Shown one piece after another: positions 4,959 to 34,643 of a DNA stretch of 36,881 nucleotides. The position numbers were made by a program, and so were the translations under genes. The notes below the pieces were generated by a model. That model was given only the letters and a program-made list of their open reading frames with translations, was not told the origin of the DNA and did not search any database. The stretch is from a virus, in IMG/VR virus record IMGVR_UViG_3300017605_000853, positions 1-36,881 of that record; one strand, given 5' to 3'. Numbering within the stretch: position 1 is the stretch's first letter; the number at the start of each line of letters is the position of its first letter.

Positions 4959-6017
4959 CTACCGCCCCGAGAGCGCGAGCGCGCGACGGAACGCGCGCGT
5001 GACGATGCCGGACACGGCGCCGGAGAGACGGCTCTCCACGGCATCCTGACGGCCCTTTCGGACATGATGGGCCCAATGGCTCACGGCTTGGAACGATCGC
5101 CACGCGGATCCCTCGGGCGCCGGGCGCTGGAAGGGATGGGAGTCGAGCGCGACGAGGTCCGACGCGAGCTCCGCGGCGCGCGCCCGGTGGGTCGGATGCG
5201 CGATCGTGTCCGGGCGCCCGTCCGGGCCGAGGAACTCCACGCGCGCGCCGTGACCTTGACCGATGCCGGACACGGAGAGGGCCCCGACCGGGATCCCGAC
5301 GATGTCCTCCACGGTGCGGGCGAGGTACACGGCACGCGTGTCCATGGCCCAACGCGTATCGGCGAGTTCCTGACTCTCGGTCCGCTGCACGGACACGAGG
5401 GCCTCGGCCGATTCGAGTGCCGCGGACGCGTGACGGATGCGCTCCGCGAGCCCGGACGTGTGCAGGAGCCGAACCGTCGCCCCCCGCGCCTCGGCCGCGC
5501 GGAGCGTGTTCGCGCAAACGACCCGGACGTCCGTCGGAAGGAACGAGAGCGCGCGCGACCCGTCGTGACCGTTCACGGCCAGCAGGTACTGGCGCTGGAC
5601 GTCGCCGTTGCCGACGGCGAACGAACCTTGACGCAAGAGCGCGAACACGACGCGCCCTCCCCGGAGGGAACCCATCGTCTCCACCGGGCGCTTGAGCGCT
5701 TGCAAGAGCTCGGCGAGGTCCGCATTCTGGACCGGGCGGAACCCGTCCGACACGATGCCGAGCACGCCGCCCGTGTCCTCGCGCACGATCGCCCGATGGT
5801 CCGGAGCGTTCAGGTATAACGGCTGGCCGTCGCCCGGGCCACCTTGTACGCTCGTGACGGCCATTACGGGCGTCGCCCGCACTGTCCAATCGAGCTTCGC
5901 GACCTTGAGTGCCTCGTTCGGCGTGACGTCGCCCTCCGGGAGCACCGTCCCGAGCCCGTGCCATGCCGGCTTCCCGACGAGCGCGAGCCCGTCCGTGTCC
6001 GTGATCTCGTGAGCCAT
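4959..6017 (-). CDS. DUF932 family phage/plasmid-like protein
   Basis: A 352-residue early protein. The N-terminus (GLALVGKPAWHGLGTVLPEG, then ALKVAKLDWTV) and the stretch VVFALLRQGSFAVGN ... YLLAVNGHDGSRALSF ... VVCANTLRAA are typical of the DUF932 / phage-plasmid family found across phages and plasmids. Its biochemical role is unknown. ATG at 6017 with the shared CACGAAAGGG box 8 nt upstream; a hairpin (GCGCCC-GTGCT / AGCAC ... GGGCGC, 6042-6073) lies in its leader. It ends 24 bp before a terminator. High early expression is suggested by the strong ribosome site. Confidence 0.85.
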   Translation of the reverse strand: MAHEITDTDGLALVGKPAWHGLGTVLPEGDVTPNEALKVAKLDWTVRATPVMAVTSVQGGPGDGQPLYLNAPDHRAIVREDTGGVLGIVSDGFRPVQNADLAELLQALKRPVETMGSLRGGRVVFALLRQGSFAVGNGDVQRQYLLAVNGHDGSRALSFLPTDVRVVCANTLRAAEARGATVRLLHTSGLAERIRHASAALESAEALVSVQRTESQELADTRWAMDTRAVYLARTVEDIVGIPVGALSVSGIGQGHGARVEFLGPDGRPDTIAHPTHRARAAELASDLVALDSHPFQRPAPEGSAWRSFQAVSHWAHHVRKGRQDAVESRLSGAVSGIVTRAFRRALALSGR

Positions 6018-6025
6018 GATCGAAT

Positions 6026-6035
6026 CCCTTTCGTG
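6026..6035 (-). promoter_or_regulatory. CACGAAAGGG initiation box (DUF932 gene)
   Basis: The 10-mer CACGAAAGGG, 8 nt before the ATG at 6017. Identical copies precede the genes starting at 6444 (box 6452-6461) and 7290 (box 7297-7306) at gaps of 7 and 6 nt. GAAAGG pairs with the 16S tail; the conserved CAC upstream is unexplained. Confidence 0.55.
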
Positions 6036-6041
6036 AGTGTG

Positions 6042-6073
6042 GCGCCCGTGCTCGTCAGCACGGCCGAGGGCGC
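6042..6073 (-). promoter_or_regulatory. leader hairpin upstream of the DUF932 gene
   Basis: Inner stem GTGCT/AGCAC (4 nt loop) inside outer stem GCGCCC/GGGCGC, in the 94 bp between two early genes. There is no U-tract, so it is not a terminator. It could stabilise the transcript or be a processing site; function is unproven. Confidence 0.3.
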
Positions 6074-6111
6074 CGGTCGGTACCGTGGACGGGCTCGCGC
6101 CCGTTTCGCGT

Positions 6112-6444
6112 TCAGCGGTGGAGGATGACGGCCACGCTCCCGTCGATGAGCGGAACGAGGTCCGCGCGGAGGGCGAACCGGTGCGTGGGCGGAGGGAGCG
6201 GGTCGGAGACGTCCGGCACCGTCGGGCCCTTCACGGCCGATCCGCAGGACACGGCCAGGAGCGCGGCGCCGAGGGCGAGGAGCCGGGCGCGGAGGGTCCG
6301 GAGCCGATCCGGCGACGGGAGCAAGCGCGGGCGCCCCGCGCGCCCCGGGAGGTCGTGCCGGGCGTGCTCGCGCCCGTACTCGCGGGCGAGCTCGCGCTCA
6401 CTCGCTTCCAGGTTCAAGCGTTCGATCGTCTCAAGACTATGCAT
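6112..6444 (-). CDS. hypothetical protein with internal lipobox-like hydrophobic segment (110 aa)
   Basis: Unrecognised. Residues 1-50 are charged and helical (TIERLNLEASERELAREYG), 51-66 are hydrophobic and end in LLAVSC with Cys67, and the following part is proline-rich (SDPLPPPTHRF). Hydrophobic run, lipobox-like Cys and Pro-rich tail recall small lipoproteins such as Rz1-type outer spanins, but the 50-residue N-terminal extension is wrong for a signal peptide unless an unseen internal start is used. ATG at 6444 overlaps the preceding gene by 8 bp, with the CACGAAAGGG box 7 nt upstream. Early location argues against a lysis role. Confidence 0.6.
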   Translation of the reverse strand: MHSLETIERLNLEASERELAREYGREHARHDLPGRAGRPRLLPSPDRLRTLRARLLALGAALLAVSCGSAVKGPTVPDVSDPLPPPTHRFALRADLVPLIDGSVAVILHR

Positions 6445-6790
6445 CGTCGTGCCCTTTCGTGTCGGTTCGGTTCGCGGACCCGGAGTGTATCGGCTCGATG
6501 GTCCAGAGAACCGTATCCTGTCCGTGCGCCTCGCGCAAGCGCTCCGCGATCGCGCGCGCGCTCTCCTCGCTGTAGTCTCCGAGGAGCTCGATCACGAGGG
6601 ACGGCTCGAGCGCCCCCTTCCAGAGCCCGACGGAAGGCGTGACGGTCGCGCCAGCGACGTGCAGCTCCGCCAGGAGGTCCGCGACGTGGTCGATGCGCCG
6701 GAGCGTGACGGTCCACCCCACGGCCATGCGATCGTCGCGCACGTTGCCCGAGAGAGGGCGCGTGCCGAGGTAGAAGCGGGCGCGGATCAC
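6437..6790 (-). CDS. hypothetical early protein (117 aa)
   Basis: Small soluble protein with an alternating beta/alpha pattern: RARFYLGTRP, WTVTLRRIDHVADLLAELHVAG, VGLWKGALEPSLVIELLGD, SARAIAERLREAHGQDTVLW. The 'GLWxGxxEPSLVIE' centre is familiar from small phage proteins of unknown function that often lie close to DUF932 genes. GTG at 6790 overlaps the hexapeptide-repeat gene's stop as GTGA. An ACT-like or ferredoxin-like fold is an inference from the pattern only. Confidence 0.65.
   Translation of the reverse strand: MIRARFYLGTRPLSGNVRDDRMAVGWTVTLRRIDHVADLLAELHVAGATVTPSVGLWKGALEPSLVIELLGDYSEESARAIAERLREAHGQDTVLWTIEPIHSGSANRTDTKGHDDA
6452..6461 (-). promoter_or_regulatory. CACGAAAGGG initiation box (110 aa gene)
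   Basis: Second copy of the shared ribosome-site box, here extended to GACACGAAAGGG as in the copy at 7297-7306, 7 nt before the ATG at 6444. Confidence 0.55.
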
Positions 6791-28183: not shown

Positions 28184-28227
28184 AAAAGGGAGGCCCCCTC
28201 CGGAAGGGAGGGGCCGGAAGGGGCCTC
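28184..28227 (-). terminator. terminator after major capsid gene
   Basis: Read leftward: GAGGCCCC (28220-28227) pairs with GGGGCCTC (28190-28197), with further pairing inside, followed by CCCTTTTC. It lies between capsid and tubular A genes, the same place as T-phi of T7, and would reduce tail gene expression relative to capsid. Confidence 0.7.
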
Positions 28228-28234
28228 GGGGGGA

Positions 28235-29323
28235 CTAGGCGTCCGTGCCGTCCGAAATCTCGATGCACGACTCCGGGCGCAGGAAGCTGACACCGGCCAG
28301 CTTCTTCGCGACCATGAGGGTGCTCTGGTACTCGATCATGTACTCGGTCTCGAGCGACAGGCCCTGGGCCTGGATCGAGCCGACACCGGACTTGTGGAAC
28401 GCGAGCGCCACGATCGACTCGTAGTGCCCGGCCGTGACCGCCACGCCGCCGTTGGTCGCGTTCGGGGCCGAAGCGCCCGAGTACACGTTCAAGCAGCCCG
28501 TGCGGTTCGCGGCCGACAGGTTCGTGAGGCCGGTCGTGTTGTCCGCACTCTTCAGCCGGTTGCTGATGTGGAGCTGGAACCCGGCCACGCGGAAGACGGT
28601 GCCGTCCGCGAAGTCGCCGTTCGAGCCCGCGACCCAGTCACGGTTCACCAGGTCCGTCTGCTGCGCCAGTGTGCTGTAGCACTCGGGCGTGATGATGACG
28701 TGGCGATCCTGCTGGGGCACGAACTTGGCGTCGAGCGCGCGCTTCAGCCGGAACAGCGTCGCCACAGCGGACGCGCCGTTCGAGTTGAAGTCCGCGTCCG
28801 ACGTGCGAGTGCCCGCCCGGTCGTTGTCCGGCCCGGAGGCCGTGATCTGGGTGGCCGAGCGCGCGCCGTTGGCGAGCATCAGCAACCCACGGATGTCGAA
28901 CTCCTCCGCGATGGCGCGGCCGAGTTCCACGGCGTGACCCGCGCGGACGTCGTACTGAGAACGAAGCTCGTCGAACTCCGCGATGGTCGCGACCGAGACG
29001 ATCGGGCCGTCGAGGAACACTTCCTTCTCGTTGGACTTGATCTGGTTCGAGAACGCCGAGTCCTGGAGCAGGTTCGTGATGATGCCGGTGGCGCCGGGCA
29101 GGAGGCCCGCCGCGGCCGCTCGGCCGGTGATGAGGAACTGGGCCGACTTGGCGCCCTTCGGGGCCATGCGGCGTTCCATGAGGTTCGCCATGACGTTGTA
29201 CTCGTCGAAGGCGTCGAGAACCTCGCCGGCGAAGACCTTGAGAAAGAGCGCAGATCCCGCAGTTTCGGTGGCGAAACTGTTGTTGGCGGAACCTGGGCGG
29301 GAGAGGATGGCATCGTCCGTCAT
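28235..29323 (-). CDS. major capsid protein (T7 gp10-like)
   Basis: 362 residues, HK97-fold T7 type. Recognisable stretches: SALFLKVFAGEVLDAFDEYN, GKSAQ-type FLITGRAAAAG near 63, EVFLDGPIVSVATIAEFDEL, QQDRHVIITPECYSTLAQQT, DGTVFRVAGFQLHIS, then GHYESIVALAFHKSGVGS and the end LAGVSFLRPESCIEI. ATG at 29323 with the best ribosome site of the window (AAGGAGGT, 7 nt away). Followed immediately by a terminator and preceded by a 259 bp gap, so it is probably its own strong transcription unit. No 10B-like frameshift extension is evident, since a TAG is followed at once by the terminator hairpin. Confidence 0.93.
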   Translation of the reverse strand: MTDDAILSRPGSANNSFATETAGSALFLKVFAGEVLDAFDEYNVMANLMERRMAPKGAKSAQFLITGRAAAAGLLPGATGIITNLLQDSAFSNQIKSNEKEVFLDGPIVSVATIAEFDELRSQYDVRAGHAVELGRAIAEEFDIRGLLMLANGARSATQITASGPDNDRAGTRTSDADFNSNGASAVATLFRLKRALDAKFVPQQDRHVIITPECYSTLAQQTDLVNRDWVAGSNGDFADGTVFRVAGFQLHISNRLKSADNTTGLTNLSAANRTGCLNVYSGASAPNATNGGVAVTAGHYESIVALAFHKSGVGSIQAQGLSLETEYMIEYQSTLMVAKKLAGVSFLRPESCIEISDGTDA

Positions 29324-29582: not shown

Positions 29583-30131
29583 CTATTCGACGTTCCCGAC
29601 GCGCGTGACCTCGAAGAACGAGCCCTTCGCGATGGTGCCGGTGGCGCCGGCGGTCTGCCACGCCACGTGCAGCTCGAGGGCGCGCGCGGCCGTGACCGTG
29701 ATGTACTGGACCGTGTGGAACGGGGCCGAGCTCGCGCTCAGGGTCACCGCCCCGCGCACGTTCTCGTACTCGACGTCGTTCGCCGCGGCCGCGGCCGTGG
29801 TGAGGGCCACGTGGAAGTCCGAGTCCGTGCCGGCCTCGACCAGGTGCAGGCCGATCTCGACGCGGTACACGCCCGGCTCCAGAAGGATGCGGTCGTTCGC
29901 GTCGTCGAGCGACACGTCGCCGCGCACCAGGAGCTCGGCCGCGGTCCACGAGCCCGCGCCGGGCTGCATGACCTTGGAGGTCTGGGCCGCGGACAGGGGG
30001 ATCTTGGTGCCCACGACCGGGAAGGTGCCGCCGGCGGCAGCTACGGTCGGGGTGACGGCCGCGCTGAAGGCGTGGCGGAGGCGCGTGTGGTACACGCCCT
30101 CCTTGACGAAGGCTTGCGTTTGCTTGCCCAT
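29583..30131 (-). CDS. beta-rich structural protein, probable head decoration or fibre (182 aa)
   Basis: 182 residues. Beta-sandwich pattern like C1q/TNF-type jelly rolls: ILLEPGVYRVEIGLHL, DSDFHVALTTAAA, FHTVQYITVTAARALELHVAWQ, GSFFEVTRVGNVE. No signal peptide. ATG at 30131. Located directly upstream of the capsid gene promoter region, where decoration or head fibre genes often lie. The fold assignment is inference from strand spacing. Confidence 0.65.
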   Translation of the reverse strand: MGKQTQAFVKEGVYHTRLRHAFSAAVTPTVAAAGGTFPVVGTKIPLSAAQTSKVMQPGAGSWTAAELLVRGDVSLDDANDRILLEPGVYRVEIGLHLVEAGTDSDFHVALTTAAAAANDVEYENVRGAVTLSASSAPFHTVQYITVTAARALELHVAWQTAGATGTIAKGSFFEVTRVGNVE

Positions 30132-30137
30132 GGGATG

Positions 30138-30554
30138 CTACTGCTGAGGGGGTTGGGATTGAGGGGAGGAGTGCTGAACGCCCCATGCCTTCAGCGCGTC
30201 ACCGGCGGCCGCGGCCACCTGGCCGCTGCCGATGTTCTTGAGGGCCGAGCCGTAGAGCTTGCGCTTGCGCCGGCTCCCGAGCGCGCCCACGACCTCGAGC
30301 GCGACCGCGCCCAGGCCGTACGGCAGGAGGCCCGCGAAGGGGCCCGCCTGGCGCTTCGCCACTTCGGACTCGAAGCGCTCCCACTCGGCCTCGACGGCGG
30401 CGTCGTCCTCGAGACCGGGCGTGGCCTCGGCCTCGACCTGCGCGGCCTGGAGGCGATCGAACTCGGAGCGCTCGGCCGGCGGGAGGGACTCCCGGTCGTA
30501 CGCGCACCCGGCGAGGGGCAGGAGCAGGAGGAGGGCGGCGAGGGTCGTCTTCAT
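30138..30554 (-). CDS. phage lipoprotein with second hydrophobic segment (138 aa)
   Basis: Signal MKTTLAALLLLLPLAGC with lipobox LAGC (Cys17). The mature part begins with a charged helix (RSEFDRLQAAQVEAEA, EAEWERFESEVAKRQ), followed by a hydrophobic stretch (FAGLLPYGLGAVALEVVGALG) and a basic segment RRKRKLYGSALKNIGSGQ. Similar 'KRKxYxxALKxIxxG' proteins occur in T7-like phages of unknown role. ATG at 30554 overlaps the Acb2-like stop as ATGA. A lipoprotein inside the head gene cluster is odd; superinfection exclusion or envelope interaction is possible. Confidence 0.65.
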   Translation of the reverse strand: MKTTLAALLLLLPLAGCAYDRESLPPAERSEFDRLQAAQVEAEATPGLEDDAAVEAEWERFESEVAKRQAGPFAGLLPYGLGAVALEVVGALGSRRKRKLYGSALKNIGSGQVAAAAGDALKAWGVQHSSPQSQPPQQ

Positions 30555-30814
30555 TCTTCGGGGCCGCCCTCGTTCCGGGCGATGGATCGGGCCGCCCAGG
30601 AGGCGGCGTTGTCGATGGCGGTGAGGGCCTCGTCCCGCTCGTAACTGGGCGGGCAGGTCGAGACCACGTGCCGCGCCATGAGGCGCGCGGACTCGCGAAC
30701 GCTCGCGATCCGGTTCTGCTGCTCGAGGTCCAGCATCGGGGCCCCGCTCACGCCAAAGCGGTGGTCCACCATGGCGCGCGCGACCGGGTCCGAGTAGTCG
30801 AGCATCGGGATCAC
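30551..30814 (-). CDS. Acb2/Tad1-hairpin-like protein, candidate anti-CBASS/anti-Thoeris sponge
   Basis: 87 residues. The part from 28 to 82 resembles the helical hairpin of Acb2/Tad1 phage proteins: RIASVRESARLMARHVV, then a turn TCPPSYER, then DEALTAIDNAASWAARSIAR. The 'P-x-S-x-E-R-x-x-A-L-x-x-[LI]-x-x-A-x-x-W-A-x-x-[AS]-I-A-R' layout is what marks that family, whose members bind cyclic nucleotide signals of CBASS (and, in Tad1, Thoeris) and so block host defence. The first 27 residues are extra and less typical. The GTG at 30814 directly follows the scaffold TAA; an ATG three codons later is also possible. Such genes often lie among virion genes. Function is inferred and not shown. Confidence 0.6.
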   Translation of the reverse strand: MIPMLDYSDPVARAMVDHRFGVSGAPMLDLEQQNRIASVRESARLMARHVVSTCPPSYERDEALTAIDNAASWAARSIARNEGGPEE

Positions 30815-31723
30815 TTAGAGCAGGCCCATCCGCTGGGACAGTGCCAGGCGCTCCGTGACCTGGTCCCGGTACGCGGGGTCTTCCTTGTACTTCGGGTCCT
30901 TGCGCGCTCGCGCCCAGTCCTCGTTCGACTGGAAGGGCACCAGGCCCCCCGCGTGCGCGCTCGGCTTGCGCCCGGCGATCACGCGCGGCGCGCGCCCGTT
31001 CTCTTGCTCGTACCGCGCGGCCAGGCCGTCCAGGGCCATCTGGGCCAGGGACTGGTCGCCCGAGTACACGGCCCGGTTGAACGTGGCCCGGTCCTCCGCG
31101 GACAGGCGGTTCTTGGCCCACTCCGTGAGCTCGGACACGGCCTCGGGCCCGCCCAGGCGCTTCGTGGCCAGCTCGTGCACGCGCTCGTTCTGGGCGGAGA
31201 GGTACCGGATCTGGTTGTCGATGTACGTGTCGGGCAGGCCCGTGCGCTGCGTGAAGTCCGCGCGCGCCTGGGCCGAGACCTCGCCCGTGGTGGCCCACTC
31301 CTGCGTGAGGCGCTGCACGAGGTCCGCGTTCCCCTGGGCCGGGGCGGGCGCGGGGGAGGCGGCGTCCGGTTGGGGAACGCCCTCCGCACTCGCCGGCTGG
31401 ACCGGCGTCGTGGCCGGGGTCGCCGGAGCTTGGCGGAGGGCGCCCATGCGCTGCTCGAGCGCGGAGTACGCCTGCGCCATGTCCTCCGGGCTCTTGAACT
31501 TCTCGGGGAGCCACGCCGGGCGCTGCTCGGCCGCGGGAGCGGGCTCGTTCGACTCCACCACCACCCGCTGCGGGCCGGACCCGGCCCCGGGCACGTCCTG
31601 GCGCGTGGGGAACCCGGACCGGCTGCCCGGGACCTGGACCTCGCGCGCGGGGTGCGTGGGCGCCAGGGGCGCGGGGGCGGTGGGGGCGGCCTGCGAGGAC
31701 GGGACGGACACTTTCTCGGTCAT
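30815..31723 (-). CDS. capsid assembly scaffold protein (T7 gp9-like)
   Basis: 302 residues. A long Pro/Ala/Gln-rich N-terminus is followed by RPAWLPEKFKSPEDMAQAYS, a hallmark of T7-like scaffolds, then an Ala/Pro linker, a helical DLVQRLTQEWATTGEVSAQA region and a basic C-terminal end (WARARKDPKYKEDPAYRDQV) that would contact the capsid protein. ATG at 31723, three bases after the portal stop. Position between portal and capsid agrees. Confidence 0.9.
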   Translation of the reverse strand: MTEKVSVPSSQAAPTAPAPLAPTHPAREVQVPGSRSGFPTRQDVPGAGSGPQRVVVESNEPAPAAEQRPAWLPEKFKSPEDMAQAYSALEQRMGALRQAPATPATTPVQPASAEGVPQPDAASPAPAPAQGNADLVQRLTQEWATTGEVSAQARADFTQRTGLPDTYIDNQIRYLSAQNERVHELATKRLGGPEAVSELTEWAKNRLSAEDRATFNRAVYSGDQSLAQMALDGLAARYEQENGRAPRVIAGRKPSAHAGGLVPFQSNEDWARARKDPKYKEDPAYRDQVTERLALSQRMGLL

Positions 31724-31726
31724 GTG

Positions 31727-33367
31727 CTACTTGGGAGGGGTTGCGGAGGGGCCGGCGGGCGCGCCGCCCTGCCCCGGGGCCAGGCCCATGCGCTCTGCGA
31801 CGCCGGGCCCGATCTGCTTGATGATCTCCGGCCCGAACTGCTGGGCCACGGCCATCTGCCGCTGCTGCTGCGCGGCCGCATCGACCTCTGCCTGCGTGCG
31901 CAGGAGCTTGGTCGTGTCCACGCCCGCGCTCACGAAGATGGCCCCGATGAGCTCGCGCACCTGGACGTACGTGTTCAGGTCCGGCGCGGCCAGGGCGGCC
32001 TGCGCGGCCTGCATGGCCACGTTGATCTTGGCCAGCTCCTGCCCGCGCCCGAGGGCCTCCACGCCCGTGACGATGGCCGCGCGCACCGCGCGCTCCGGCA
32101 GGCGCTGGATCTTGCCCTGGCGCGCGAGGCGCGTCCGGATCTGCTCCACGAGGGGGAGCTGGAGTTCCTGGGAGAGGACGGAGAACACGCCCCCGAGCGT
32201 GGCCTCGAGCTCCTGGGCCACGAACCGGATCTCCTCGGCCGTGACCCGCTCGGCCTGTCGCTGGACGGCCGTGTTCAGGAGGAAGGCCGCGCGCAGGCGG
32301 TCCGTGGTCGCGCCCATGACCGAGAACGCGACCTGCAGGTCCCCGTTCTTCCCGATCTGGGGGTAGCTCACGTCGGTCGGCCGACCGACCACGAAGGACC
32401 CGTTCGGGGCCCGGTTCAGGTCGTCCGCGGTGGCCGCGCCCGCGGGGTCCACCATGCCCACGCACCGGCTCGCGATGGCCGCGGCCTCGACCACGGCCTT
32501 GGTCAGGGCCTCGAGCGTGACGAGGTCCCCGAGGACCTCCTCCACCATGCCCCGGCCGTAGTCCTCGCCGTCGATCGTGCCGTACCGGAGCACGAGGAAC
32601 GGGGCCAGGGTCTCCTTGTACAGGCCCTTCACGCCCGGCACCTGCTTGCCCGCGATCTCCTGGTGCAGGCGGTACCGCTTGGCCTCCGGGTCCCACTCCA
32701 TGCACGTGAACAGCTCGACCGTGTCCCGCGCGCGCCCGGCCTGGCGGTAGTCCCCGCCGGCGGAGGCCTTGGCCAGGAGGAGGGGGTCGTGCCCCGCGCC
32801 CTCGCCGGCGGGGCCCACGAGCTCCGCGAGCTCGGGCGGGAGGGCGTCCCGGTCCAGGCACTCGCGGACGATCAGGCACTCCAGGAACCCCATCGGGTCC
32901 CGGCGGGCCACGTACTGGTCCAGGGGCACCATGCGGCTCGAGCCGTCAGGCTGCAGGTGCAGGACGCCGTTCCCGGCCACCAGGAGGTGCTTCAGGAGTT
33001 CGAACAGGCGCACGCGCAGGGCCATGGTCTCGAACTCGGCCGCGACCACCTTCTCCATGCGGCTCAGGCCCTCCTCCACGTCCTGCTGGGCCTTGGGCCC
33101 GGCCGCGCGCACGGCCTCCGGGTCCGTGGGCATGAACCGGAAGAAGGGCTGCGTGGGCGGGAACAGGGAGAGCAGGAGCTTGCTCGCCAGGTTCGTGACC
33201 CCCTGCGCGCCCAACCCCTGGTAGGGAGTGACGGTCTGCGACTCGGGCGTGTGCCCGAGCGGGGGCACCAGGGTCGGGAGGGTGACCCGGGCCGCGTCGC
33301 GTGCTCGGCGAAGGAAGGGCTCGCGGTCCGGCGCCCACTCGGAGTACGCCGCGGCCGCGTCGCGCAC
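31727..33367 (-). CDS. portal / head-tail connector protein (T7 gp8-like)
   Basis: 546 residues. T7-type portal features: GLGAQGVTNLASKLLLSLFPPTQPFFRF near the N-terminus, GNGVLHLQPDG, VLRYGTIDGEDYGRGMVEEVLGD, RQAERVTAEEIRFVAQELEATLGGVFSVLSQELQLPL and a Gln-rich C-terminus. GTG at 33367, three bases after the stop of the small Pro-rich gene. It forms the dodecameric portal through which DNA is packaged and ejected. Confidence 0.93.
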   Translation of the reverse strand: MRDAAAAYSEWAPDREPFLRRARDAARVTLPTLVPPLGHTPESQTVTPYQGLGAQGVTNLASKLLLSLFPPTQPFFRFMPTDPEAVRAAGPKAQQDVEEGLSRMEKVVAAEFETMALRVRLFELLKHLLVAGNGVLHLQPDGSSRMVPLDQYVARRDPMGFLECLIVRECLDRDALPPELAELVGPAGEGAGHDPLLLAKASAGGDYRQAGRARDTVELFTCMEWDPEAKRYRLHQEIAGKQVPGVKGLYKETLAPFLVLRYGTIDGEDYGRGMVEEVLGDLVTLEALTKAVVEAAAIASRCVGMVDPAGAATADDLNRAPNGSFVVGRPTDVSYPQIGKNGDLQVAFSVMGATTDRLRAAFLLNTAVQRQAERVTAEEIRFVAQELEATLGGVFSVLSQELQLPLVEQIRTRLARQGKIQRLPERAVRAAIVTGVEALGRGQELAKINVAMQAAQAALAAPDLNTYVQVRELIGAIFVSAGVDTTKLLRTQAEVDAAAQQQRQMAVAQQFGPEIIKQIGPGVAERMGLAPGQGGAPAGPSATPPK

Positions 33368-33819: not shown

Positions 33820-34269
33820 CTATGTAGGGGGATGAAAGACCGGGCGCTTCATTCGCGCGAGGCGCCGCGTCAGGTCCTCCCGGCGTCGTCGGTCCTCGTC
33901 GCTCATCGCCTGCCCGCGCCCGCGCTTGGGCTCGCCCAGGATGGCCTCGGCCTGCTCGCGCTTCTCGAGGAGGTGGGGGAGCAGGAGCTCGAGGCACGCG
34001 CGCGCCCGGTCCCCGGATACGCACCACTCGAAAGCCGGGCGGCACCGGGGCCCCACGTCCTTGTTGCACACGGACCCGCCGAACCAGTCGCAGAGCATGA
34101 GCAGGGTCGGGAGGTGGCAATTCGCGATGCGAACCAGGGGCGTGCCCCCGCGGAACGTGAGCGAGCTTTCACCGTCCGCAAAGCCCGCGGCCCACCCGAT
34201 GACCGCGGGGGAGGTGGGGGGGCTGGGGACCTCCACGGCGTAGAACGTGCGCTTCTTGCCCTTCCTCAC
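33820..34269 (-). CDS. LAGLIDADG homing endonuclease
   Basis: 149 residues. Residues 24-35 (IGWAAGFADGES) are a LAGLIDADG-type motif with an acidic catalytic residue at Asp32 or Glu34. The following SLTFRGGTPLVRIANCHLPTLLMLCDWFGGSV and WCVSGDRARACLELLLPHLLEKREQAEAIL match the beta-beta-alpha folding of single-motif family members, which act as dimers and cut DNA to spread their own gene. The end is basic and possibly extended. GTG at 34269 overlaps the DUF4406 gene as GTGA. It has no intron around it, so it is free-standing; the target site may lie in the same region of related phages. Confidence 0.85.
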   Translation of the reverse strand: MRKGKKRTFYAVEVPSPPTSPAVIGWAAGFADGESSLTFRGGTPLVRIANCHLPTLLMLCDWFGGSVCNKDVGPRCRPAFEWCVSGDRARACLELLLPHLLEKREQAEAILGEPKRGRGQAMSDEDRRRREDLTRRLARMKRPVFHPPT

Positions 34270-34643
34270 GAGGACCCGATCCCCGAGTCCACCACGCGCA
34301 CCCAGTCCCATCGCCCCTCGCGCCACAGGCCCCCGTCCGGGGCCATGGCGAACACGCGCAGGTTCACGACCTCGGCCGCGTGCCGCTCGAGGAGGGCGCC
34401 CGCGGACCCCTCCCACCCGGGCAGGAGCACGATCCCGTCGCACGCCAGGAGGGCGAACAGGTCCCGTGACATGGTGCTGGGCATATCCTGGAGCGCGACC
34501 TCGGGCCCGCCGATGGACTCGTCCAGCTCGGCCGGGGACACGATCTCGTGCCCGCGCGAGCGCAGGAGGGTCGCAGCTGCCCGGAACGCGGGGAAGTTGT
34601 ACTCGGGGATGCCGCGCATGGGACCGGCGAGGTAGAGCTTCAT
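34266..34643 (-). CDS. DUF4406 / nucleoside 2-deoxyribosyltransferase-like protein
   Basis: 125 residues. MKLYLAGPMRGIPEYNFPAF is the DUF4406 signature; later RDLFALLACDGIVLLPGWEG-SAGALLE is the second conserved part of the nucleoside 2-deoxyribosyltransferase-like fold. It may act on nucleosides or nucleotides in the cytoplasm; DUF4406 members lack a defined reaction. ATG at 34643 overlaps the MazZ-like stop as ATGA, so the two nucleotide genes are coupled. A base-exchange or nucleotide-hydrolysis role during replication is plausible. Confidence 0.75.
   Translation of the reverse strand: MKLYLAGPMRGIPEYNFPAFRAAATLLRSRGHEIVSPAELDESIGGPEVALQDMPSTMSRDLFALLACDGIVLLPGWEGSAGALLERHAAEVVNLRVFAMAPDGGLWREGRWDWVRVVDSGIGSS

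What the first reader, a model, noticed from the sequence alone, without database searches (positions are those of the whole stretch)
30551..30814. Acb2/Tad1-like anti-CBASS candidate between scaffold and capsid genes
The 87-residue protein has a helix, a TCPPSYER turn and an A-L-x-x-I-x-x-A-x-x-W-A-x-x-x-I-A-R helix, the recognisable layout of Acb2/Tad1 hairpins, which sequester cyclic nucleotide signals of CBASS and Thoeris. It has an extra N-terminal 27 residues and is coupled to a lipoprotein gene, so the pair may form a small counter-defence or exclusion module placed in the head operon.
Basis: partly seen in the sequence, partly recalled or inferred. Interest (0 to 1): 0.75.

Follow-up and report, generated by a model that had tools for sequence, protein, structure and literature searches.

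The report
Divergent Acb2-like sponge in capsid operon
A small protein made together with this virus's capsid proteins belongs to a known family that soaks up bacterial alarm molecules, but it and its closest relatives have lost several residues that known members use to hold those molecules, so what it binds, if anything, is open.

Summary
The gene is real: 30551-30814, minus strand, 87 aa. It belongs to the Acb2/Tad1-hairpin family. It passes Pfam PF24729's curated cut-off (28.0 against 27 bits) and matches PHROG 1454. A profile built only from 15 other phage homologues scores it 53 bits (1,200 shuffled clade sequences: at most 9.4). The predicted fold's best PDB matches are Acb2 homolog 43 with 3'cADPR and T4 Acb2 with cGAMP, though with weak Foldseek E-values. 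The gene sits at the same place (portal-scaffold-acb2-lipoprotein-182-aa gene-capsid) in all eight related metagenomic contigs that cover the slot (six sequence types with the window), but not in about 90 loci of more distant T7-like relatives. The aromatic aligned with T4 Tyr8 is absent (0/6). The near-invariant Arg of the turn, aligned with PaP2 Arg67, is Trp or Tyr (0/6 against 14/15 in homologues). The basic residue at T4 Lys23 persists as Arg. Best reading: a late-expressed sponge with an altered pocket. Its ligand (CBASS oligonucleotide, Thoeris cADPR or other) is untested, and loss of binding is not excluded. The lipoprotein module is only positional.

The parts
30551..30814 (-). Acb2/Tad1-hairpin-family gene, 87 aa (GTG start; alternative ATG at 30805); predicted helices at residues 10-19, 30-53 and 58-81
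   Evidence: PF24729 28.0 bits (cut-off 27); PHROG 1454 E 1.9e-12; family profile 53 bits; AlphaFold models
30138..30554 (-). Small lipoprotein gene (lipobox LPLAGC), 138 aa, start overlaps the acb2-like stop (ATGA)
   Evidence: weak lipobox match PF08139 (below cut-off); homologues in L002 (42%) and L017/L018 (67%)
30815..31723 (-). Scaffold / capsid assembly protein gene, 302 aa
   Evidence: PF05396 E 3.1e-9; PHROG 1052 E 3.5e-31
29583..30131 (-). 182-aa gene, conserved 61-82% in the clade, no family match
28235..29323 (-). Major capsid protein gene, 362 aa
   Evidence: PF21703 E 2e-25; PHROG 267
31727..33367 (-). Portal (head-tail connector) gene, 546 aa
   Evidence: PF12236 E 9.5e-69; PHROG 449
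28194..28210 (-). Terminator-like stem and T-run just after the capsid gene
   Evidence: Consensus scan only

Best explanation
The gene encodes a small, soluble, all-helical protein of the Acb2/Tad1-hairpin family (shown by sequence; fold predicted). Like Acb2 it most likely forms a ring of several copies (probably a hexamer) that binds and sequesters a cyclic nucleotide-type alarm signal made by a host abortive-infection system such as CBASS or Thoeris, so the suicide effector stays off (inferred from the family). It is translated from the head operon between scaffold and capsid genes (position shown; expression inferred), so the sponge would be made in bulk at the stage when capsid proteins accumulate. 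Published escape mutants link the major capsid protein to CBASS sensing. Because several ligand-contacting positions differ throughout this phage clade, the ligand or affinity probably differs from that of T4 or PaP2 Acb2 (inferred).
For: PF24729 above the curated cut-off. PHROG 1454 matched by the window and by the three relatives scanned, L006, L017 and L072, at E 2.2e-4 or better. tblastn to actinophage homologues at E 2e-7; those tested score 71-80 bits to PF24729, and one related gene is annotated 'cyclic nucleotide sequestering protein'. A profile with the actinophage homologues finds PDB 9ptq 'Acb2 homolog 43' at E 3e-6, a structure solved with 3'cADPR. A profile without the clade scores the window 53 bits, 9ptq 45, T4 Vs.4 16, shuffles at most 9.4. 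Predicted fold of a short N-terminal helix plus a long antiparallel hairpin matches the published Acb2 protomer (PMC12043709); top viral-structure matches are mostly Acb2/Tad1 hairpin proteins with probability 1.00. Arg40 aligns with the basic residue at T4 Lys23 / PaP2 Lys26, and Thr65 with T4 Thr68, whose mutation weakens binding. Gene retained at one place in every close relative whose slot is covered. Capsid mutants of PaMx41 escape CBASS (PMC10419184, PMC10286901).
Against: No aromatic at the position of T4 Tyr8, whose mutant is binding-deficient (PMC12657230), in any of six clade members. Turn Arg (14/15 homologues, PaP2, 9ptq) is Trp or Tyr in 6/6; Asn of the WAN motif (14/15) is 0/6. 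Thr65 is kept only in the window, not in its relatives. Foldseek E-values to PDB are 1 or above and the VIA Z of 7 is in the range of unrelated hairpins. Pfam score only just passes, and relatives fall below the cut-off. No binding data.
Confidence: 0.55

Rival explanations
1. A retired or repurposed sponge: the hairpin fold is kept but nucleotide binding has been lost and the protein now serves head assembly, for example as a scaffold or portal partner.
For: Fixed position next to scaffold in all members; family-typical ligand-side residues replaced in 6/6 while a new clade motif RL[FML]ARH plus PPS[WY] is largely conserved; absent from more distant T7-like relatives, so clade-specific.
Against: T7-like phages assemble heads without it (92 scaffold+capsid loci lack it). 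Basic Arg40 and the hairpin core stay conserved. Other family members also sit in late or packaging regions, for example upstream of terminase or between lysin B and holin.
Confidence: 0.2
2. A sponge for a signal not known to be bound by characterised Acb2, for example a larger cyclic oligoadenylate or another defence nucleotide, reached by remodelling the pocket around Trp/Tyr58, Arg40, Arg48 and His49. (Overlaps with the best explanation; the confidence is not additive.)
For: The family already spans cGAMP-binding T4 Acb2 and a 3'cADPR-binding homologue; clade-wide coordinated replacements with new conserved aromatic and basic residues.
Against: No ligand evidence; which residues line the pocket in this clade is not known because no multimer model could be made.
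Confidence: 0.3
3. acb2-like gene and lipoprotein form a two-part counter-defence or superinfection-exclusion module.
For: ATGA overlap in the window and a small lipoprotein gene immediately downstream in all six sequence types.
Against: The lipoproteins are of several unrelated types (window/L002/L017 type; L003; L006; L072), which argues against a specific protein partner; no neighbour of T4 vs.4 or of the actinophage homologues viewed is annotated as a lipoprotein.
Confidence: 0.08
4. Chance resemblance of an amphipathic helical hairpin to the Pfam model, with no true relationship to Acb2.
For: Pfam score only 1 bit above the cut-off; helical hairpins match many folds.
Against: Independent profile scores 53 bits against at most 9.4 for shuffles; PHROG 1454 E 1.9e-12; homology spans the N-terminal RF motif, SVR, the P-x-S/G turn and the WA..IAR end.
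Confidence: 0.03

Closest known systems
Actinophage / Paenibacillus-phage Acb2-like proteins (PHROG 1454; e.g. Gordonia phage DatBoi, Mycobacterium phages prophi91-3 and StellaBean gp101)
   Same: Length 65-100 aa, [IV]xxRF N-terminal motif, SVR in the first long helix, P-x-[GS] turn, WA..xIAR end; best matches 30-38% identity
   Different: Most carry [FY]H before the hairpin, R-E-K in the turn and WANAAIARN; the window clade lacks the aromatic, the turn Arg and the Asn, and has RLxARH and PPS[WY] instead
Acb2 homolog 43 (PDB 9ptq, with 3'cADPR)
   Same: Profile match E 3e-6 with the wider family, 45 bits with the clade-free family profile; best Foldseek PDB match of the second model, TM 0.59-0.73
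   Different: Retains the GREK turn Arg; 15% identity; Foldseek E 1.0, so the structural match alone is weak
T4 Acb2 (Vs.4, PDB 7uq2) and Pseudomonas phage PaP2 p26 Acb2 (8h2j)
   Same: Same Pfam domain for Vs.4 and PaP2 p26, same three-helix layout; Arg40 at T4 Lys23 / PaP2 Lys26, Thr65 at T4 Thr68 / PaP2 Thr74
   Different: About 16% identity to Vs.4; no aromatic at T4 Tyr8; PaP2 Arg67 position is Tyr58; longer N terminus; shorter loop between the long helices
Tad1 (PDB 7uav, 8kbc)
   Same: Shares the C-terminal helical hairpin and part of the SRE..ALT motif region
   Different: Tad1 has an N-terminal beta-sheet domain (PMC12043709) that the window protein lacks

Membership tests
Pfam PF24729 Acb2/Tad1 hairpin | Score above the curated cut-off | tested here: met
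   28.0 bits against 27; relatives L002 25.7, L003 26.3, L072 20.7, L017 16.4, L006 13.9 fall below
PHROG 1454 | Significant profile match | tested here: met
   E 1.9e-12; L006, L017 and L072 also match
Acb2 (sponge) | Short N-terminal helix plus two long antiparallel helices | tested here: met
   Predicted H10-19, H30-53, H58-81; hairpin pLDDT mostly above 90, N-terminal 20 residues about 48
Acb2 (sponge) | Clear structural match to solved Acb2 | tested here: inconclusive
   9ptq rank 1 (E 1.0, prob 0.94) and 7uq2 rank 3; Z about 7 tied with unrelated hairpins
Acb2 (sponge) | Homo-hexamer | not testable with these tools
   Only single-chain prediction was available
Acb2 (sponge) | Aromatic residue of the dinucleotide site (T4 Tyr8; Y8A is binding-deficient, PMC12657230) | tested here: not met
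   No aromatic between residues 21 and 28 in the window; 0/6 clade members at the aligned column; sequence alignment only, so another residue could take its place in space
Acb2 (sponge) | Basic residue at PaP2 Lys26 / T4 Lys23 (role in phosphate contact from my own knowledge) | tested here: met
   Arg40, Arg in 6/6 clade members and 15/15 homologues
Acb2 (sponge) | Arg at PaP2 Arg67, trinucleotide site (role from my own knowledge, not found in the papers held); not a defining feature for T4 Acb2, which has Asp there in the alignment | tested here: not met
   Tyr58 in the window, Trp or Tyr in 6/6; Arg in 14/15 homologues
Acb2 (sponge) | Binds cyclic oligonucleotides and inhibits CBASS | not testable with these tools
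   Needs purified protein and phage assays
Tad1 | N-terminal beta-sheet domain before the hairpin | tested here: not met
   87 aa, no strands predicted

The most novel reading that the evidence does not exclude
A clade of T7-like phages has fixed an Acb2-family sponge inside the capsid operon and remodelled its pocket (loss of the stacking aromatic and turn Arg, gain of Trp/Tyr58 and an RLxARH face) to capture a defence signal not bound by characterised Acb2, made exactly when capsid protein accumulates.
Probability: 0.3. Interest if true: 0.6.

Novelty: new variant of a known kind. Interest (0 to 1): 0.4.

Why it matters
If it binds a nucleotide signal, it extends the Acb2 family to a clade of uncultivated T7-like phages, ties counter-defence to capsid synthesis (the stage linked to CBASS escape by capsid mutations), and offers a natural pocket variant to show how these sponges change ligand. 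If it binds nothing, it would be an example of a counter-defence protein taken into the head operon for another job.

Tried and rejected
Single-sequence search of viral contigs found no relatives, and the clade alignment A2 found none in bacterial genomes, so no prophage or host assignment. phmmer of the window protein alone against PDB gave only chance hits, and so did the four-member profile; only the wider profile reached 9ptq. hhalign of the family against single T4 Vs.4 was inconclusive (probability 6%). The wide alignment A3 could not be used for a contig scan. dN/dS within the clade is uninformative because synonymous sites are near saturation. NCBIfam has no model for it. No sigma-70-like promoter was found in the operon. 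Repeat search gave only GC-rich background. Chance resemblance was rejected. Tad1 proper was rejected: no N-terminal beta domain. Published mutant data for PaP2 Arg67 and Lys26 could not be found in the papers held, so their roles are marked as own knowledge.

Full report
WHAT IS THERE. The window is a 36.9-kb virus record with no host known to me. It carries T7-like head genes on the minus strand: portal (PF12236), scaffold (PF05396, PHROG 1052), the 87-aa gene, a lipoprotein gene, a 182-aa gene and the major capsid gene (PF21703). The 87-aa ORF starts directly after the scaffold stop codon. Its TGA overlaps the ATG of the lipoprotein gene. A terminator-like hairpin follows the capsid gene, and no sigma-70-like promoter is seen inside the block, so the gene is probably translated from the late head transcript (inference).

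FAMILY. The protein passes the Pfam cut-off for Acb2/Tad1 hairpin by one bit (28.0 against 27) and matches PHROG 1454 at E 1.9e-12. tblastn finds homologues in phages of Gordonia, Mycobacterium, Paenibacillus and Brevibacillus, the listed ones at 29-38% identity, best E 2e-7. The four tested score 71-80 bits to PF24729. A related gene in Mycobacterium phage StellaBean is annotated 'cyclic nucleotide sequestering protein'. To guard against circularity I built a profile from 15 such phage proteins without any member of the window's clade. It scores the window 53.3 bits, the other five clade members 27-42, a 47-residue fragment of PDB 9ptq 45, T4 Vs.4 16, and the best of 1,200 shuffled clade sequences 9.4. 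An eight-sequence profile finds 9ptq, 'Acb2 homolog 43', in the PDB at E 3e-6.

STRUCTURE. AlphaFold2 on the six-member clade alignment gives a short helix (10-19, low confidence) and a long hairpin (30-53, 58-81; pLDDT mostly above 90). [quoted passage not shown] In BFVD most of the top 22 Foldseek matches are named Acb2/Tad1 hairpin proteins, most with probability 1.00 but with E-values of 0.006 or more (first model). In the PDB the first match of the second model is 9ptq with 3'cADPR, and T4 Vs.4 with cGAMP ranks third; E-values are 1 or above. VIA-align gives Z 7.0-7.2 for both, tied with unrelated hairpins. Structure is therefore consistent but not decisive; sequence carries the case.

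RELATIVES OF THE PHAGE. Searches with the capsid, portal and 87-aa proteins brought in eight other contigs of the same clade that cover this slot (L002, L003, L004, L005, L006, L017, L018, L072). With the window they make six distinct sequence types. All carry the gene in the same order, portal-scaffold-acb2-like-lipoprotein-182-aa gene, with capsid following. Among 92 further loci with both scaffold and capsid matches (more distant T7-like relatives, capsid and portal roughly 27-45% identical over most of their length) none has a tblastn match to it, and profiles found none either. Some of these loci may come from overlapping contigs, so 92 is an upper count. The gene is thus a fixed, clade-specific feature and not a sporadic insertion. 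The downstream gene codes for a small lipoprotein in all six types but of several unrelated sequences, so a specific partnership is not supported.

THE POCKET. Aligned with 15 homologues, T4 Vs.4, PaP2 p26 and 9ptq, the clade shows consistent replacements. (a) The residue aligned with T4 Tyr8, whose Y8A mutant is binding-deficient (PMC12657230), is Phe or Tyr in 11 of 15 homologues but never aromatic in the clade (0/6); the alignment there has gaps, yet no aromatic lies anywhere between window residues 21 and 28. (b) The turn Arg (14/15 homologues; PaP2 Arg67; also 9ptq) is Trp or Tyr in 6/6. (c) The Asn of WANAAIARN (14/15) is 0/6. In contrast Arg40, at T4 Lys23 / PaP2 Lys26, is Arg in all. 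The window keeps Thr65 at T4 Thr68, a position where T68M lowers binding, but its five relatives do not. New conserved features are RL[FML]ARH in the first long helix (L072: HLFARH) and PPS[WY] in the turn (L072: PCCY). Fisher tests give p of about 1e-4 for (b) and (c) and 0.004 for (a), but sequences within the clade are not independent, so these are descriptive. That PaP2 Lys26 and Arg67 contact di- and trinucleotides rests on my own knowledge; I could not find it in the papers held.

MECHANISM. Most likely the protein is a sponge: an oligomer that binds a cyclic nucleotide-type defence signal and keeps the effector inactive (confidence about 0.55). Shown: family membership, position, conservation, residue changes. 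Inferred: oligomer, binding, late expression, counter-defence. Late expression with capsid genes makes sense because capsid mutations let PaMx41 escape CBASS, though no direct activation by capsid is shown (PMC10419184, PMC10286901). The family's ligand range already includes cGAMP (T4) and 3'cADPR (9ptq), so neither CBASS nor Thoeris can be singled out. The main alternatives are a changed ligand (compatible with the sponge reading) and loss of binding with a structural role in head assembly.

VERDICT. The anti-CBASS function is plausible but untested, and the replaced pocket residues caution against naming it Acb2. The lipoprotein module idea is weak. It is a divergent, syntenically fixed variant of a known kind.

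Noticed in passing
L018 4986-6669: In a close relative the major capsid gene looks split: capsid matches at 4986-5108 and 5722-6669 flank an HNH-like ORF at 5200-5664, as if an intron or homing element interrupts the capsid gene.
   Followed up: no
window 33820-34443 (-): HNH-endonuclease-like ORF (PHROG 5046, E 2e-15) upstream of the portal gene.
   Followed up: no
window 30138-30554 (-) and the same slot in L002, L003, L006, L018, L072: The slot after the acb2-like gene always holds a small lipoprotein, but of several unrelated sequence types; the window type ends in a glycine-rich hydrophobic stretch and a conserved GDALKAWGVQHSSP tail.
   Followed up: partly
window 29583-30131 (-): 182-aa protein between lipoprotein and capsid genes, 61-82% conserved in the clade but without any Pfam or PHROG match; possibly a head decoration protein.
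   Followed up: no
L009, L148, L150, L153: Acb2-family genes of other phages also sit in late or packaging regions: between lysin B and holin, and just upstream of terminase genes.
   Followed up: partly
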